A DNA stretch of 64,000 nt from Otis tarda. Its lineage: Eukaryota; Chordata; Aves; Otidiformes; Otididae. Shown here one piece after another: positions 10,600 through 63,280 of this stretch. Positions within the stretch are counted from its first letter, which is position 1. Every line of letters starts with the position of its first letter. The stretch is taken from positions 77,657,009-77,721,008 of the forward strand of contig CM048591.1 of NCBI GenBank assembly GCA_026413225.1, written 5' to 3'. Made by a program: the position numbers and the translations under genes. A model generated the notes under the pieces. It saw nothing but the letters and a program-made list of their open reading frames with translations, made no database searches and had not been told where the DNA came from.

Positions 10600-11068
10600 A
10601 AAGTCCCTCCCACTGTAAGAGAAGATCAGGTTTGTGACCACCTGAGGAACTGAATATCCAGAAGTCTATGGGACCTGACAAGATACATCCTAGAGGGAAT
10701 TGTCCTGTGTAGTTGCTAAGCCACTCTCCATGACGTTTGGAACGTCATGGCAGTCAGGTGAGGTCCCTGCTGACTGGCAAAAGGGAAACACCACACCCAT
10801 TTTTAAAAAGGGTAAAAAGGAGGATGCTGGGAACGGCCCACCTGTCCGCCTCACCTCTGTGCCTGGGAAGGTCATGGAGCAGATCCTCCTAGGAGCTATG
10901 CTGAGGCACATGGAGGACAGGGAGGTGATTTGGAAATGTTCAAGGCCAGGTTGGCCAGGGCTCTGAGCAACCTGATGTGGTTGGAGATGTCCCTGCCCCT
11001 TGCAGGGGGTTGGACTGGGTGGCCTTGAAAGGTGCCTTCCCACCCAAACCCTTCTGGGATTCTATATG
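10600..11068 (+). mobile_element. Avian CR1 LINE fragment with internal deletion
   Basis: On the + strand the sequence translates to CR1 reverse-transcriptase motifs: WQSGEVPADWQKGN, then PIFKKGKKEDAGN, then TSVPGKVMEQILL and AMLRHMEDREVI. Immediately after the last motif, at about 10930, the sequence jumps to the CR1 3' untranslated end (GGCCAGGTTGGCCAGGGCTC, then CCTTCCCACCCAAACCCTTC, ending in GATTCTATATGA). The intervening part of ORF2 is therefore missing. It lies directly downstream of the ancient CR1 copy. It is non-functional: 5'-truncated and deleted. Confidence 0.9.
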
Positions 11069-12445
11069 AACATTTTAGAGGTGAATACAAAATACATTTT
11101 TTCTGAATTTCATCAGAGGTGATCAGAAAGGTGGTGTACTGGCCTTCCTTTTGCTGTCAGCTGATAATGATGTTTGAATATATGAAATGTGTTTCGTTAC
11201 TTTTTTTTTCAGCATGATTTTAATTGTGTACGGAAATGTTATGCTTCAAAGGTTTAGAATGACAGCATTTCTTGTTCTCTCATCTTTCTTAATTTCAACC
11301 TCATGTGCAAAGTCCAATTTGCTGTCTTTATGTATGGTTTCTCAGGTGGCAGCTTCGGTTTTGGACACAATTGTTAGTAAATTTTTTTCTGAGATATGAA
11401 AGAGCAATTTGGAAATAATCTCTGACAAAACATAAATCTGAACATTTTTTCTCACACAGGGAGGCTGAGATGCATATGGCATTATTGTTACTGTAAAGTA
11501 TTGTAGGTCTCTTCATGTTCAACACATACGATTGGACTTGAAGATTTAAATGAAGAGACTCATATTCAGGGAGAAGCTGTTCAATTATTTCTTTTAAATT
11601 TATCATTTTGTGCTCCCTTGAAGGTTGTATTCTGAATATAAAGAAGACTGCAATTTTTTTTATCTGGATGAAGTCTTTGTGTTTCTCTAGTTTTAATGGC
11701 ATAATCAGTGATTGATCTTTGCTGTTCTTCAGCTTTTGAGGATAAATAGAGGGTGCTTCTGAATTAAACACATCTTTAACCACTTCTGAGAAGGCCTGAG
11801 GTGGAGGTTTAGGTAATGACTAGCATGTTTTATTGACGATGACACTGGAAGGTCTCACTTTGCAGAATCTTCTAACTTATCAATGCTTTGTTCTTTCACT
11901 TCAATAAGTAAAAAAAAAAATTGGTAGTTCTCTTGATCTACTAGACAGCCAAGAATATTATTCTTTGGTCTCCTATCTCCACTGCATGTTCCTTTTGGCT
12001 ATTTTATTACCTAAATCCAGACAATATTTGTTTTGTGAAAATCCCACCGGGTTTAGGTGTGTTAAGTTAGTTGTAGTACTCACCAAATGCTAATTAGCTA
12101 CTTGTGGTATTGATCAGCACTTTTCATTTTCTACAAGTTTGAGTGAAAAAGTATAAATCAGGGTATTCAATATTGTGAAGACTGTAACATAAGTGAGTTA
12201 GCGAGCTTTATGTAGAACCACGTAACAGAAGATTTTCTTCTCTTGCGAAGCAAATGAGCAGTTTTCCCTCTCCACCAGCTGCTCAGAATTTCACAATCTT
12301 TTTAAGTCTTTTCAGTTTCAGTTCCATTGATTTGCCACGTTCTTTCCTGCAGTCATGAGTGACAAATGTTTCACTTGTTTGTAGGCTCTAGGCTCGTAAT
12401 TTTTATTCTGTTTCATAACTGGAATAAGAAAAATTTGTTTCAAAA
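11069..12445. other. FAM172A intron, no gene seen
   Basis: This is AT-rich intronic sequence between two CR1 fragments. A 151-codon open frame on the minus strand (11328-11783) has no recognisable motif and its length is near what chance gives in a window this size. An A-run lies near 11910. Confidence 0.5.
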
Positions 12446-12687
12446 TAGAGGGAGGTAGATTTAGATTAGATATTAGGAAGAATTTTTTTACAATAAAGGC
12501 AGTAGAACACTGGCCCAGGTTGCCCAGAGAGGTGGTGGATGCCCCATCCCTGGAAACGTTTCAGGCCAGGTTGGCCGGGGCTCTGAGCAACCTGATCTGG
12601 TTGGCGATGTCCCTGCTCCTTGCAGGAGGGTTGGACTGGGTGACCTTTAAATGTCCCTTCCAACCCAAACCCTCCTGTGATTCTAAA
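12446..12687 (+). mobile_element. CR1 LINE 3'-end fragment
   Basis: This is the classic avian CR1 3' region in + orientation: AGATATTAGGAAGAATTTTT, then GGTTGCCCAGAGAGGTGGTG, GGTTGGCCGGGGCTCTGAGC, and the terminal CCTTCCAACCCAAACCCTCC followed by TGTGATTCTA. It is 5'-truncated, as most CR1 copies are. Confidence 0.95.
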
Positions 12688-13043
12688 GTATTTATCAAGA
12701 TTTCTCCCCTTTAAAAATTCACCGTTCAATCTGAAACTTAAAAACTTTGCACGAAATGAAAGACCCCCCGTAGAGCCTCGACAGGTCTGGTGCTTCTTGG
12801 TTTGGTAACAGCGAAGAACTGAGAATTGAGACAACATCAATATGGCAGCCTGAATGTCAGTAAGATTAGATTTCAAGGATAATTTGATCTTACCCTATAT
12901 ATTGATAGCAACTGTGTGAAATACTAACCAGCATGCTGCTGAAGTATTTTATACGCGGGTGCTGCTATATCAGGTGATAGTTTGTTTGAGACAGGACTCA
13001 TACGGAAAAATTAATTCACTGTTTGAAAACCTTAAGAATGTCA

Positions 13044-13090
13044 TAACCTTTGAAGGTTCCTTCCAACCCCAACCGTTCTATGATTCTATG
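13044..13090 (+). mobile_element. CR1 3' terminus, very short
   Basis: Only the extreme CR1 3' end is present: TTGAAGGTTCCTTCCAACCC followed by CAACCGTTCTATGATTCTAT. It is an extreme 5' truncation in + orientation. Confidence 0.85.
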
Positions 13091-14504
13091 TATGTAGAGT
13101 GACTAACTCAGGGAATTCACTGTAACTGCATACATTCATAAAACTTACGGTATAGTTGTGCGTTGGAAAAATGAATCTGAGAAAAGGAAAATTAAACAGT
13201 ATGTTTAGACAGTAAATTATCAGCAGAATTTAGATTGGTGACATTCCTAGCTACGTATTATTGGAAGGTTGTTATTGCATGTGAATAACAATGTTGAATC
13301 ACATTGTTAAATTAAACTAATTGAAGTTCAGCATTTTGCTGAATTTGTTCGATTTATGTTTAAATAAAGGATCAGAAATAAGTCTTCGTGAGTAAGTCCA
13401 GAAGAGAAAGTGGCTAATAAATATAAATTATTTTATGCAGCCTCAGTGTGTCTAGCACTAAATGGTATTTTACGTTGGTTTGTCAATAAAGTAAGGGTGT
13501 GCACAAGAGTGACGTTTATGTGCCTTCTGTAGTGAAGGCTTGATCTAATGAATTAGTACTGTTTGAAGATAAATTATCTTGAAGAAAAGTTTCCAAGTGT
13601 GATTAATTTGATGAAGAGAATGAAGAGTTGGTTTTTATGATCTTGGTAGATATTTCTAAGTTTTTCAAATTAACGTATTTGCAGAAGTGTGAACTAGTTA
13701 TATCTTCCAGTACATGTGATTATTAAGTGCTAGTATTTCCTAAATACTAAACAGAAATTGAGTTTATAAATACTTAAATGCATAGCTATGTTTTATCTTT
13801 GTCTGAAATGCAAATTCGCAATGTCTTCTCTTAATTACAGTATCATAAGTATTCAGTTTATGTGCAAAAGTCACATCTTCACAAGTACTATCTGGAATTT
13901 AATGTCGTCTGACTTTTTACCTAAGACATGTTAATTTTCTTTTACCATGTTTTCTCTTTTTACACAAAGTATGAGAGTAGATGAGTGCATCTCCTGTGCA
14001 GAAAGTGCAGGCTGAGGCATGTGAGATGTTACATCATTTTAGGGCAGGGAATAAGGTCTTCAGTGCTGCGGGAGATCATGAAGAGAGAAATTATCATTCT
14101 TCCAGTTAGGAGTTCCATATCGTTTACGTCATTAAAAAAAAGGACTTGCATTTTAAAAAGTCTGGAGATTCATGCAGAATTAATTTTTCCTAAGGTAAGG
14201 CTAGTTAAGAATACATGGCAGAAAAACCTGACGTAATCCAAATAGCCATTCCTCCTGTTTCAGGGAACGGCTCGTATCCTGACCTGCCTTTCATCGCTGT
14301 TGCAGAGCGTAAGGCGATCCAGGGTTGTTCCTAGCAGCTGCACGGTTAGCTTGTGCGAGTTTGGGGTGCAAAGTATGGTAGGATGGGGAGCCTACAAACA
14401 AGTGAAACTTTTGTCACTCGTGACTGCCGGAAAGAACGTGGCAAATCAATGGAACTGAAACTGAAAAGACTCAAAAAGATTGTGAGAATTCTGAGCAGCT
14501 GGTG
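13091..14504. other. FAM172A intron, no gene seen
   Basis: AT-rich intronic sequence runs up to the left arm of the inverted repeat. I see no exon or recognisable repeat. Confidence 0.6.
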
Positions 14505-14893
14505 GAGAGGGTTTTCTTGCTTGCCTGTCTGTTTGGTTTTGTTTTAAGGAAACCAGAGGTGATATTTCTGAACTAGTTTCTGCACAAAAGACATTAAAGC
14601 ACTACTTCTGCAATTTTTACATGTTTTTTTTAAACGAAAATCTAGTCTCCAGCAAATGTTTTAAGCTACCCGCACGTTTCACACTCACAATCAGTGGAAT
14701 TTTCCAAATCCCAGATACTTTTATCCACTTCAAATTCACACAGTTTATTAGAGAAAAAAAAAAATCCACCTTCTCCTGCCATCAGCACTGTAACCTTACC
14801 CTTTGATAAGGTCTCCTATTTCATTCAAGGATGAGACCTCTTTTTAGAAGAAATGCTGGAAGATCAAGGACAATTATTCCTTACTTCAAACTG
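14505..14893 (+). repeat. Inverted repeat, left arm (389 bp)
   Basis: The segment from GAGAGGGTTTTCTTGCTTGC to TTCCTTACTTCAAACTG is the reverse complement of 18109-18500. Reading the two arms side by side, I count one C/T difference in AGCAAAYGTT, one A/G difference in GTCTCCTRTTT, one C/T difference at the extreme end, and length or base changes in an A-rich tract (about 14750-14764). The homology ends sharply and the flanks are unrelated. I see no target-site duplication and it is not CR1. The arm lies 849 bp upstream of the FAM172A exon at 15743. The apparent 61-codon open frame inside it is simply this repeat. Confidence 0.95.
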
Positions 14894-15742
14894 TTATTCC
14901 TTTTCTGTGTATTCATATGGTAGAAAGGGAAGAATGAGTAGATTTTTTTTCCTGCCCTCGTGATGTTTACATCAGCACAGTCCTTTTGCCTTGAGCCAGG
15001 CTTGCTTAAACCAAGTGTAGACGTGTTTTATGGAAGTTCTGTTTTTATTGAACAAAAGTGCTGCTTTACTCTCTAGAGCAAGGACAAACTTAGAATTAGA
15101 TGATGATTTACTGAATATTGAAGTAGCTGAGCTTTGACCTGCGTGCAGGACTCTTAATGAAGCCATTATTTAGACCCAAATTGGATTTCTGTGTTTTGTT
15201 AGGCCTATCCTATTAAATTTATAATAGACAAATTTACAATACTTGTTCCTGCGTGCCTTATTGGGTAATTTTGTGTACTTGTGTTGAGGTGGCTGAGGTA
15301 GAACTCTCCAGGATTTTTTTTTCATATTATGTAAGAATTTTATTGTTGCTTCAGGCATATCAGAGGTGACAAATTACTTGTTCTCCTCTCCTCACCCCCC
15401 AATTGCTCTTTTATGGACTTTCTCTTTTTGCCAGTAAAATTTCTGTAAACAACTGATGTTTCAAAGTTTTAGCATACTTTTTTACCCCTTTTCTAATTTA
15501 AATCTCCTTTGGATTACTGTTCTAAATTGTGGTATGGTTTTATATTTTGAAGTTATGTTGCACAGATATTATCTTTTGCTTTATTTTTATTTAGTACTGG
15601 GCACGTATTAGTGCTTATAATATGCATACAAATAGTCGTTAAATGGTGAAACTTTTTATATCAATTTGGTGACTAACTTTATAACTACAGATGTTTTTTT
15701 AAAAATGTTATTGATGTGTAAAGGCGTTGTCTGTAATTGCAG
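14894..15742. other. FAM172A intron between left repeat arm and Arb2 exon
   Basis: AT-rich sequence leads to the acceptor AG at 15741-15742. It holds small open frames on the minus strand without features. Nothing else is recognised apart from T-runs and the splice-acceptor region. Confidence 0.6.
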
Positions 15743-15934
15743 GTTGATGCGACGGAGAGTGAACCAAAGAGTTTTATCTTTATGAGTGAAGATGCGTTGA
15801 CAAACCCTGACAAGCTGTTGGTCCTAATTCATGGTAACGGTGTTGTCAGAGCCGGTCAGTGGGCTAGGAGGCTTATCATTAACGAAGACCTGGACAGTGG
15901 CACGCAGATACCGTATATAAAGAGGGCTATTGAG
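15743..15934 (+). CDS. FAM172A: FAM172A (ARB2A) internal coding exon, start of Arb2 domain core, 64 codons
   Basis: The translation starts [20 protein letters not shown] and contains [19 protein letters not shown], then [18 protein letters not shown]. This is the highly conserved Arb2-domain core of FAM172A. Arb2 domains have an alpha/beta-hydrolase-like fold, and the HG-x-G turn after the hydrophobic strand sits where such folds carry an oxyanion-type loop. The acceptor is a TGTAATTGCAG context ending at 15742, and the donor GTAGGT starts at 15935. The exon is 192 bp, phase 0 at both ends, and continues directly from the exon at 6819-6884. The codon after HG is AAC (Asn); from memory mammals have Ser there, so this may be a lineage difference. 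The exon lies between two near-identical inverted repeat arms (14505-14893 and 18109-18500). The following exon of the gene was not found in the rest of the window. Confidence 0.97.
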
Positions 15935-18108
15935 GTAGGTGAAAGTACATGTACATATGGTTGTGTGTACATATGCACGTGTATGTGCGTGCCTGTGTAT
16001 GAAGACCTCTAAATCTGTGATGTTTTAATTTCTTAATCACCATTCCATATATCCCTGTATGATAATTATATTTATGATGAGACTACTTGCTTGGTTTTTT
16101 TCAGAACTTCTTTCTGACGGAACCAAGTTTCTTTTACAGTAGAATAAAAATCTAGTTGTATGTCATGTTGTTGTGACGGCACTGCGATGTAGTTTAATAT
16201 GGCAGCTAACGTGACAAGAGCCCTTAGCAGGCGATGAGATGCAATAGAAGGCACTACAGAAATTTGTTATGATTTGAAGTGTTTTCTTTTACATTTCATT
16301 AAATTTGTACGTGTTCTCACTCAACGTCTGTTGTAATCTCATGATAACATGAGCTTTCATAGTAACAGCAGGCTTTTTTGCTAGCCTTATACTGAATTTA
16401 TTAGAGGCACAGTCTTTTTCAGTTTTGCACTGAATACTGATTCATTCTGATTCACCTATCAATACTTGACAGTAAAAAACATTTGCATTTTATGGACATT
16501 ATTTTGTTACATTTATGTCAATGTGAGAGACAATGCACAATTTGTGTAATGTTTTTAACACTAGAACTTTGTAGGTGTAATTAATCTCTTGTATCTTGCT
16601 ACCTAAATGAAACTTCAAGGTAAACATTAGAAAAGCCTATTTGAGGCTCACTATTTCTATTATATTTACCAAGTTAAGCTAATATTCTACTCTAAATATC
16701 AGTGTTATCAGTGTAATTTTTAGATGTTTTGCTAAACAAAGTAGATTTTTTTTCAGTTGGCTTTAAAGTGTTCAGTATAGAAAATGGTTCTCTTCAAATG
16801 TTTTCTTTTTTTTTTAATGAAGCAAAGAAAGAAGACATATTAAAGCATTAGGCCATTAAGTTTTGTTTTGTGTAATCCACTGACAAAGCACCAAACTACA
16901 CTTTGTATGAAAAAGAAACCTAGTCTTGTGAAGGCAGTGCTTGCCTTCTAACATAAAGTTTTTGTTCATTTTAAATCAAGACTCAGAGGCAGAACAAAAA
17001 CTACTTTAGGATTATTGAGTGTAATATAGGTGTATGGTGGGTCCAGTGTGCGAGGTTAATCTCTAGAGTGCAAGTTCCAAAACCTTTCCTGAGAAACCTG
17101 AAGAGCTGTAGCTACTTAAATTTTTGTAGCAATGGTTACATGCCTGCTTCTTCATTCTTTTCTAGAGATACTAGTGTCTTGGCTAAGTGAGAGGCTGAGC
17201 ATTTAAAACAGGGATACTATCTCTAAATGAACAGATAATCTTTAAGAGAGTGTTTCTAGTAAAGGAGACTAACAGTTCTTTTTCCTGTCTTGTTATTTTT
17301 ATTTATTTTATGCAATGATTGTGCCAGTGTAACAGCACTGTTCCCTCAGATGGTTATTATCCTTAAAAACAGATTACGTATTTCTGCATTTTGCATGCTG
17401 CTTTTAAAAACACAGGAAAAAACCCACAGAGTTTAATGAGAAGCTATCTTTAAAAAAATGTAATCATTCAGTTACATTGGGACATTGGACTTTCTGCTCT
17501 TATCTTTTCACTTCCTTCTTTCTTAGCATGATTTTTAAATTCATAGTTCTTTTTAGCTGCGTAATTCCAGCTGCTGTAAAACCCTCTCTCCCTTTTTGTG
17601 CATCTTAAAATTCTGGCAAATGTACTACATGTTTAGAACACACACTATTTGCAATGATTTTTTTTCAGGCAAAATGAAGATTAGATCGTAATCATTTATA
17701 TTATATTAAATATGTTGCTATTTTTTGTATCCTGTAATCATTGTAGTGGGAATTGAATGTATATCTGGGTAGATAAGGCAATATTTTATGGAAGTCGAAC
17801 TCCACTGAAGGTATTTGGAATCATTATGTTATGATTAAAAAGAGAATACAGATAGCTACATGCTGATACCATTCTACGTCATGTACAGATCATACAAATT
17901 ACGCTTCCAAGTGCAGGAAATTATGGAAGAGTGAGTATAAGGACTCCAGTTTTAGTTGATAATAATAAAAATTGCATATTTTTCTGGGTTTTCTGGTGTT
18001 CAGCTTGTAGTTGGTTTAGGCACTTCTTTCACTTAGGAAATGGAAATAACTGGCCTAGACAATAAATGGCCTGAGTGAAAACTGTGGTAACATCTCATGC
18101 AACATTGC
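15935..18108. other. FAM172A intron between Arb2 exon and right repeat arm
   Basis: The sequence begins with the GTAGGT donor. A GT/AC-rich alternating tract follows at about 15945-16000 (GTACATGTACATATGG..., TGCACGTGTATGTGCGTGCC). The rest is AT-rich intron without recognisable elements. Confidence 0.6.
15945..16000. repeat. Alternating purine-pyrimidine (GT/AC-rich) tract
   Basis: An imperfect run of GT, AC and AT dinucleotides lies directly downstream of the splice donor of the Arb2 exon. Such tracts can adopt non-B DNA and can pair or recruit splicing factors, but no effect is shown here. Confidence 0.6.
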
Positions 18109-18500
18109 CAGTTTAAAGTAAGGAATAATTGTCCTTGATCTTCCAGCATTTCTTCTAAAAAGAGGTCTCATCCTTGAATGAAACAGGAGACCTTATCAAA
18201 GGGTAAGGTTACAGTGCTGATGGCAGGAGAAGGTGGATTTTTCTTTTTTTTTCCTAATAAACTGTGTGAATTTGAAGTGGATAAAAGTATCTGGGATTTG
18301 GAAAATTCCACTGATTGTGAGTGTGAAACGTGCGGGTAGCTTAAAACGTTTGCTGGAGACTAGATTTTCGTTTAAAAAAAACATGTAAAAATTGCAGAAG
18401 TAGTGCTTTAATGTCTTTTGTGCAGAAACTAGTTCAGAAATATCACCTCTGGTTTCCTTAAAACAAAACCAAACAGACAGGCAAGCAAGAAAACCCTCTC
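18109..18500 (-). repeat. Inverted repeat, right arm (392 bp)
   Basis: This is the reverse complement of 14505-14893, beginning CAGTTTAAAGTAAGGAATAA and ending GCAAGCAAGAAAACCCTCTC. It is three bases longer only because of the A/T-tract (about 18240-18256). The arm lies 2174 bp downstream of the FAM172A Arb2 exon, so the two arms enclose a 3.2-kb loop with the exon inside. The minus-strand open frame at 18196-18570 derives largely from this arm and is not a gene. Confidence 0.95.
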
Positions 18501-19524
18501 GGTAGGTCAAAACCCTGTGCTTTTCTCTACTGACTTTCTCTGTGGAGAGTGATGAGACTACCACAAGCAAATTTCAGTTTATTTCTTGGGAAGACTGAAA
18601 ACAGGGAGGCAAAAGCTGGAGTTATAAGTGAGCAGTTGATTGAGCAGGATGAATTGATACCATCCCTCCTAACAAGGAAGTTAGGAGTAGAAAAGAAACT
18701 ATTTCTCTCTGGTACAACACTTTCAAGAAAAAAAAAAATTAAAAACTTTTCTCTTAAAGCATGGAGTAAGGGAGCAATGTAAAGGCTTAAAGTTTATCAT
18801 GCTTCTAGTGGCTTGGGGCTAATGTGCATTAGAAATAAAATATCCAAGAGGAAACATCCTGGTGGGAATTCGAGTAGCTAGAAATGTGGTTTTTCTTTCC
18901 ATCTGGGTGGTTCCTGTAGGTAATACTTCTCCTTCCATCTTTTATATCAGACTCTCTTGTGTAGATTCAATCTTTTGTGTAATAGGTGTTGGAGGTAATT
19001 TACAAGGTTTTCTGGGAAGAGATAAGATTATTGTGTTAATTCAGAAATTCAAACTTGATAGTGTAAAGAAGATTCTGAAATATGAAAGTAGAAGGGAACA
19101 AGCAAGCAACTAGATAGGGAACAGATTGTAGGAAAAGGAGGAGGGAGGAAAGTGTATACAATGTGAGAGACAGATATGTGTAAATACGTTAAAACACGGT
19201 AGGGAAAGACCTACTTCAGAAAAACAAGTATGAAAACGGTGAACGTGGGAATATAAGGCAGTAAGACAGTAACAAAAGCTTAATGAAAAGAAAACAAATA
19301 CACATTATAAAGATACTTTAAAAAGATGGCAATTTCCAGTAAATACAGTGCAAAATAAATATTGCTTAGGTTAATTGTTTTGTTAAAAAAACCTCTCTAC
19401 TGAACCTTTCTACAGCGGGTAATACTGATTTTTGACGGAAGCAGTCATCTGGCATGTAAGAGACTGAAGTTCAAGTCCCTCTTCTGGGAATGAAGGATTA
19501 TTCCATTTACAATGCTGCACTGGA

Positions 19525-62935: not shown

Positions 62936-63280
62936 ATCACAGAATCACAGGATGGTTTGGGTTGGAAGGGACCTTCAAAGGTCATCCAGTCCAACCCCCC
63001 TGCCAGGAGCAGGGCCATCTCCAACCAGATCAGGTTGCTCAGAGCCCCGGCCAACCTGACCTGGGATGTTTCCAGGGATGGGGCATCCACCGCCTCTCTG
63101 GGCAACCTGGGACAGTGCCCCACCACCCTCAGTGTAAAAAATGTCTTCTTTATGTCCAGTCTGAATCTGCCTCCCTCTGTTTTAAAACCATCACCCCTGT
63201 CCTGTCACACCAGGCCCTGCTGAAGAGTTTCTCCCCGTCTTTCCTGAAGGCCCCTTTGGGGACTGGAAGACCAATCCCAT
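62936..63280 (-). mobile_element. CR1 LINE 3'-end fragment, reverse orientation, well preserved
   Basis: The sequence begins AATCACAGAATCACAGGATG and GTTTGGGTTGGAAGGGACCT. It continues with CCAGTCCAACCCCCCTGCC, the typical GAGCAGGGCCATCTCCAAC and GTTGCTCAGAGCCCCGGCC, and extends through TGTCCTGTCACACCAGGCCC to GGACTGGAAGACC. This is the reverse complement of an avian CR1 3' region. It looks less decayed than the other copies, so it is probably the youngest. Open frames over it are repeat artefacts. Confidence 0.97.

What the first reader, a model, noticed from the sequence alone, without database searches (positions are those of the whole stretch)
14505..18500. Near-identical 390-bp inverted repeat bracketing a FAM172A coding exon
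Arms 14505-14893 and 18109-18500 are reverse complements. Over roughly 375 positions outside an A-tract I count two internal base differences (both transitions) and one at the extreme end. Both ends are sharp, the flanks are unrelated, there is no visible target-site duplication, and the arm is not CR1. Such identity in an intron full of decayed repeats implies a recent duplication, ongoing gene conversion between arms, or an assembly artefact. Recombination between the arms would invert the 3.2-kb spacer and flip the Arb2 exon, so the structure could also seed harmful inversions.
Basis: seen in the sequence. Interest (0 to 1): 0.8.

Follow-up and report, generated by a model that had tools for sequence, protein, structure and literature searches.

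The report
Two-template copy insertion in gene intron
A 506-bp stretch in an intron of the FAM172A gene looks like a DNA-copying accident that stitched together backward copies of two nearby pieces of the same gene; one of them creates the near-perfect inverted repeat around an exon, and the process is a known one.

Summary
The inverted repeat is real: arms 14505-14893 and 18109-18500, three transitions apart outside an A-tract. In the 1.198-Gb genome the arm matched only these two places. The insert 14388-14893 (506 bp) is best read as one replication template-switch (FoSTeS/MMBIR-type) insertion from donors 2 kb upstream and 3.2 kb downstream; arm B is then donor, arm A derived. In 260 kb these are the only two low-copy inverted pairs of at least 90% identity, and they abut. 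Nine FAM172A exon hits lie on + in order, so the exon is not flipped and its bracketing looks incidental. Gene conversion between the arms is undecided (p = 0.067); an artefact is unlikely. Short repeats at two outer boundaries stay unexplained, and no outgroup could be searched, so direction is inferred. The arms would pair as RNA across the exon; circular RNA or editing is testable, not shown. Interest is low.

The parts
12266..12388 (+). Donor 1: inferred source of the left half of the composite insert (copied in inverted orientation)
   Evidence: Matches 14388-14511 inverted, 124 columns, 4 mismatches and 1 gap; genome search of 12080-12436 finds only itself and the copy
14388..14511 (-). 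Left half of the composite insert: inverted copy of donor 1
14505..14511 (.). 7-bp junction microhomology GAGAGGG shared by both donors
   Evidence: Present at the end of both copied blocks; 7 bp or more at random pairs of positions: 7.8e-4 of 200,000 draws, 5.5e-4 by formula
14505..14893 (-). Right half of the composite insert = arm A of the inverted repeat (inferred derived copy)
14894..14902 (+). TTATTCCTT directly at the right junction, repeating 14874-14882 inside the arm
   Evidence: a 9-mer repeated fully within the preceding 30 nt occurs at 61 of 63,930 window positions, 19 if at least as complex
12382..12395 (+). TAGGCTC twice in tandem, the boundary of donor 1 lying exactly between the two units
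   Evidence: 7-mer tandems at 41 of 63,986 window positions, 4 if at least as complex
15743..15934 (+). FAM172A coding exon, 192 nt, frame 0 open, Arb2 domain; sense orientation
   Evidence: Pfam PF22749 E 7.8e-14; frame; order and strand of nine exon hits
18109..18500 (+). Donor 2 = arm B of the inverted repeat (inferred original)
   Evidence: genome search of 17700-18900 finds only itself and arm A

Best explanation
The repeat is the scar of a single replication-repair accident. A nascent strand in this FAM172A intron left its own template and copied about 120 bases backward from 12388-12266. It switched at the shared bases GAGAGGG to 18500-18109, copied about 390 bases backward, and returned to the original site. 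(The mirror-image order of steps fits as well.) The product is the 506-bp chimera 14388-14893, and arm A is its half that matches arm B. Shown: two abutting inverted copies, the 7-bp overlap, no further copies found, and the divergence. Inferred: that one event made both, its direction, and the polymerase pathway (FoSTeS/MMBIR type).
For: The insert is accounted for end to end by two nearby inverted templates. They overlap by 7 bp, which random pairs of positions reach at 7.8e-4. In 260 kb of continuous sequence (6,906 N) 171 self-matches at E <= 1e-8 were found; after dropping those under 90% identity or covered three times or more, four remain: these two inverted pairs, which share a boundary, and two short direct pairs. 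Four searches of the 1.198-Gb genome with the copies and their flanks find only the three local places. No target-site duplication at the ends of the insert and no terminal poly(A) were seen by eye. Complex inserts from several templates, inverted copies and junction microhomology are the published signature (passages read: PMC2621351; PMC8421209; PMC5120786).
Against: The two halves differ in divergence (4/122 against 3/370 outside the A-tract, Fisher p = 0.067; p = 0.14 when gaps and the A-tract are counted, 5/123 against 6/389), where one event predicts equality unless the arms were later converted or the first tract was copied with errors. The left outer junction shows no microhomology and the right one at most 1 bp if no target bases were lost (read). 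Two short repeats at outer boundaries are not accounted for: TTATTCCTT at the right junction and the TAGGCTC tandem at the outer end of donor 1; the latter could as well mark 12266-12388 as the inserted copy. No outgroup with an empty site could be examined.
Confidence: 0.75

Rival explanations
1. Two separate duplication events of different age used the same fragile spot: 12266-12388/14388-14511 and arm A/arm B, with the break near GAGAGGG.
For: Divergence 3.3% against 0.8% (p = 0.067).
Against: Requires an independent endpoint within 7 bp of the first, when these are the only two such pairs kept in 260 kb; the overlap looks like a microhomology join.
Confidence: 0.12
2. Reverse direction: 14388-14893 is old, and two overlapping pieces of it were copied outward in inverted orientation to 12266 and 18109.
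For: Sequence identity alone is symmetric. TTATTCCTT twice near 14874-14902 would then be ordinary old sequence, and the TAGGCTC tandem would lie at the edge of an inserted copy.
Against: Needs two insertions at two sites whose source pieces overlap by just seven bases; one composite insertion is simpler.
Confidence: 0.08
3. Patch insertion of reverse-transcribed FAM172A pre-mRNA at a double-strand break (class 2 templated sequence insertion) instead of DNA template switching.
For: Both donors are intronic parts of the same sense transcript and both are inserted antisense; no target-site duplication seen; microhomology. Class features from passages of PMC5110952.
Against: Read in sense, the order is downstream piece then upstream piece, so one plain transcript cannot give it; a second template switch or a ligation is needed.
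Confidence: 0.12
4. [quoted passage not shown]
For: The 123-bp half, which may be too short to convert well, is more diverged. Homogenisation of IR arms is documented elsewhere (passages of PMC8604942).
Against: The difference is not significant; error-prone copying of the first tract gives the same pattern (passages of PMC6902434).
Confidence: 0.3
5. Assembly artefact.
For: None found beyond the high identity; reads could not be examined.
Against: Copies differ from each other, two different templates are involved, and one contig of 84.19 Mb runs through.
Confidence: 0.03

Closest known systems
FoSTeS / MMBIR complex templated insertions (PMC2621351, PMC5120786; passages read)
   Same: Iterative copying from several templates, inverted copies, microhomology at a join
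   Different: Seen as a germline scar in a presumed bird intron; microhomology at the inner join is 7 bp against the 2-5 bp quoted for Pelizaeus-Merzbacher duplications (PMC5120786 lists over 4 bp as one feature of its complex cases), and 0-1 bp at the outer joins
MMB-TI germline insertions in humans (PMC8421209; passages read)
   Same: Inverted copies of nearby DNA; complex events with several templates exist as germline variants
   Different: That survey sought templates within 100 bp; here donors are 2 and 3.2 kb away and the insert is 506 bp
Short-range template switches in great apes (PMC7954356; passages read)
   Same: Reverse-complement copying from nearby template that creates inverted repeats
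   Different: Median copied length in its gold-standard set is 12 and the maximum 128; here about 123 plus 389
Class 2 templated sequence insertion polymorphisms (PMC5110952; passages read)
   Same: No target-site duplication or poly(A); microhomology; experimental inserts of 73-414 bp
   Different: Those templates are distant; here both are local and two are joined

Membership tests
FoSTeS/MMBIR templated insertion | Inserted DNA copied from other genomic templates that remain in place | tested here: met
   Both partner copies present at 12266-12388 and 18109-18500; which copy is the template is inferred
FoSTeS/MMBIR templated insertion | Microhomology at joins | tested here: inconclusive
   7 bp at the inner join; 0 bp at the left outer join and at most 1 bp at the right; PMC5120786 calls blunt joins at a portion of junctions not uncommon (passages)
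FoSTeS/MMBIR templated insertion | Iterative switching, more than one template | tested here: met
   Two templates in one 506-bp insert, assuming one event
FoSTeS/MMBIR templated insertion | Empty ancestral site | not testable with these tools
   The search tool holds no relatives of this genome
Transposable element / long terminal inverted repeat element | Other copies in the genome | tested here: not met
   Only local places in 4 answered genome searches; very common words are skipped by the tool
Transposable element / long terminal inverted repeat element | Target-site duplication at outer ends | tested here: not met
   By eye the flanks at 14387/14894 and 18108/18501 share no duplication
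Class 2 templated sequence insertion | No TSD or poly(A) tail; NHEJ-like joins | tested here: met
   By eye; the A-tract is internal and present in both arms
Class 2 templated sequence insertion | Template from a distant region | tested here: not met
   Templates are local
Class 2 templated sequence insertion | RNA intermediate | not testable with these tools
   Would need experiment

The most novel reading that the evidence does not exclude
The accident created a working regulatory structure: the near-perfect intron arms pair in the FAM172A pre-mRNA, loop out the single in-frame 192-nt Arb2 exon, and thereby give a lineage-specific circular RNA, exon skipping or heavy adenosine editing, while arm conversion keeps the pairing intact.
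Probability: 0.1. Interest if true: 0.5.

Novelty: new member of a known kind. Interest (0 to 1): 0.27.

Why it matters
It shows how a low-copy inverted repeat can arise around an exon without any sign of a transposon, and it is a tidy example of a two-template switch in a vertebrate germline. Because arms of this identity would pair strongly across one exon, the locus would allow a direct comparison, between species with and without the insert, of whether new intron pairing alone starts exon circularisation. Otherwise it is an ordinary mutation scar.

Tried and rejected
Dispersed repeat or transposon: rejected, only local copies; the search tool warns that very common words are skipped, so this is not absolute proof of rarity. 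RNA family: 0 matches of 4227 Rfam families at gathering threshold in 13500-19500. Tandem repeats at score 30 or more in 14000-19000: two short arrays, outside the arms. Coding content of the arm: open frames of 103 and 125 codons stop to stop, not scanned against any family library; not followed. Third template in the flanks: small-word search inside the window (E <= 0.5) with the six flanks gave only 12-17-base hits, apart from a 25-base (88%) hit that belongs to the 12437-12684 repeat. Repeat continuity as a clue to direction: the flanks searched around all three places match nothing else in the genome, so it gives no answer. A wider census of such duplications was planned but only the 260-kb neighbourhood could be done. 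Searches for a W-linked or other FAM172A copy (exon protein; family PF22749) and for the spacer did not complete. Literature: in the titles and abstract starts listed (20 of 90 papers; 20 of 126; 20 of 23; 10 of 169) I saw no report of this locus or of such an insertion in a bird; FAM172A with circRNA (12 of 12 listed) named no circular RNA of this gene in title or abstract start; none of those twelve was opened. Further listings.

Full report
Observation. The arms 14505-14893 and 18109-18500 are reverse complements. Outside the A-tract three transitions separate them, one of them the seventh base from the end; the A-tract differs by one substitution and two small gaps. BLAST gives 97.96% over 392 columns. 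Both ends are sharp: 400-bp flanks align within the range of shuffled controls. In the own genome (1,198,220,595 bases, 116 contigs; window at C40:77657009-77721008) the arm has two matches, these two.

A self-comparison of the 64-kb window shows seven non-trivial matches at E <= 1e-4. The best is the reported pair. The third is 14388-14511 against 12388-12266, inverted, 96% over 124 columns. It ends inside arm A: bases 14505-14511 (GAGAGGG) belong to both blocks. Alignment gives 4 mismatches and a 1-bp gap. Both partners continue differently beyond their blocks. Thus 14388-14893 (506 bp) is a chimera of two inverted copies of DNA lying 2.0 kb upstream and 3.2 kb downstream, meeting at a 7-bp microhomology. 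Random pairs of positions in the window share 7 bp or more at 7.8e-4 (200,000 draws; 5.5e-4 by formula). The other five matches join 10931-11064, 12437-12685, 13043-13090 and 62938-63188, apparently a dispersed repeat.

Uniqueness. Genome search with 14300-15100 at E <= 10 finds itself and the two donors only; with 12080-12436 itself and the copy; with 17700-18900 itself and arm A. In a 260-kb contiguous stretch around the window (6,906 N), 171 self-matches pass E <= 1e-8; keeping those of 90% identity or more whose sequence is covered fewer than three times on average leaves four: these two inverted pairs and two direct pairs of 72 and 58 bp. That the only two inverted pairs kept share a boundary is the main argument for one event. 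By rough reckoning (inference, in no call: 16 endpoint pairs, 15 positions, 260 kb) coincidence is near 1e-3; if events cluster within about 12 kb it is near 0.02.

Direction and age. One composite insertion explains both pairs with one new piece, so the copies at 12266 and 18109 are taken as donors and arm A as derived. This is inference; no outgroup is held here. Divergence is 3/370 (0.8%) for the long half and 4/122 (3.3%) for the short half, Fisher p = 0.067; counting gaps and the A-tract, 6/389 against 5/123, p = 0.14. With assumed (recalled) neutral rates of 1.5-3.5e-9 per site per year the pooled 7/492 gives 2.0-4.7 million years, with intervals from 0.8 to 9.7. The excess in the short half can be chance, error-prone copying (replicative repair is described as error-prone in passages of PMC6902434), later homogenisation of the long arms (homogenisation of IR arms: passages of PMC8604942), or two events. 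I cannot decide among them.

Loose ends. The sequence after the right junction starts TTATTCCTT (14894-14902), which also stands at 14874-14882 inside the arm. A 9-mer repeated fully within the preceding 30 nt occurs at 61 of 63,930 window positions, at 19 if at least as complex. At the outer end of donor 1, TAGGCTC stands twice in tandem (12382-12388 and 12389-12395) with the block boundary between the units; 7-mer tandems occur at 41 of 63,986 positions, 4 if at least as complex. Both were noticed after the fact. Slips at the switches could leave such marks, but the second also fits the reverse direction, with 12266-12388 as the inserted copy; I gave that reading a little more weight for it.

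The exon. 15743-15934 is 192 nt, open in frame 0, with an Arb2 match (PF22749, E 7.8e-14). Hence the spacer has not been inverted relative to the gene in this assembly. As far as these hits show, donor 1 and the insert lie in the upstream intron and donor 2 in the long downstream intron; the bracketing follows from where the second template happened to be.

Possible consequences. As RNA the arms form a duplex of -689.8 kcal/mol, against a mean of -133.2 and a best of -211.6 for 60 random pairs of the same size; the short pair gives -217.2. In the predicted fold of 14300-18700, 386 of 389 arm A bases pair with arm B; donor 1 lay outside that fold, so its competition was not modelled. Complementary sequences in flanking introns favour back-splicing (passages of PMC8516420), and ADARs act on double-stranded RNA (start of abstract of PMC8938519). 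Nothing here shows that it happens.

Verdict. A real, apparently recent, local inverted duplication, better described as a two-template switch insertion; ordinary in kind, neat as an example.

Noticed in passing
10931-11064, 12437-12685, 13043-13090, 62938-63188: Four mutually similar stretches (84-89% identity in pairs), one starting 49 bp after the end of donor 1; apparently a dispersed repeat, not classified here.
   Followed up: no
14874-14902: Nine-base direct repeat TTATTCCTT whose second copy starts exactly at the right junction of the insert; not explained by a simple three-switch path.
   Followed up: partly
12382-12395: TAGGCTC in tandem, with the boundary of donor 1 exactly between the two units; unexplained, and compatible with the reverse direction.
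   Followed up: partly
18109-18111 and 18501-18507: Donor 2 begins with CAG and is followed by GGTAGGT, so it looks superficially like an exon with a splice donor; probably coincidence.
   Followed up: no
14250-14387: The left flank of the insert is 55% G+C with 7 CpG, against 39% and an expected 2.0 for the window; the part from 14300 has no other match in the genome.
   Followed up: partly
L003-L022 region: The 260-kb neighbourhood holds 6,906 N, withheld or gap, none in the window itself.
   Followed up: no
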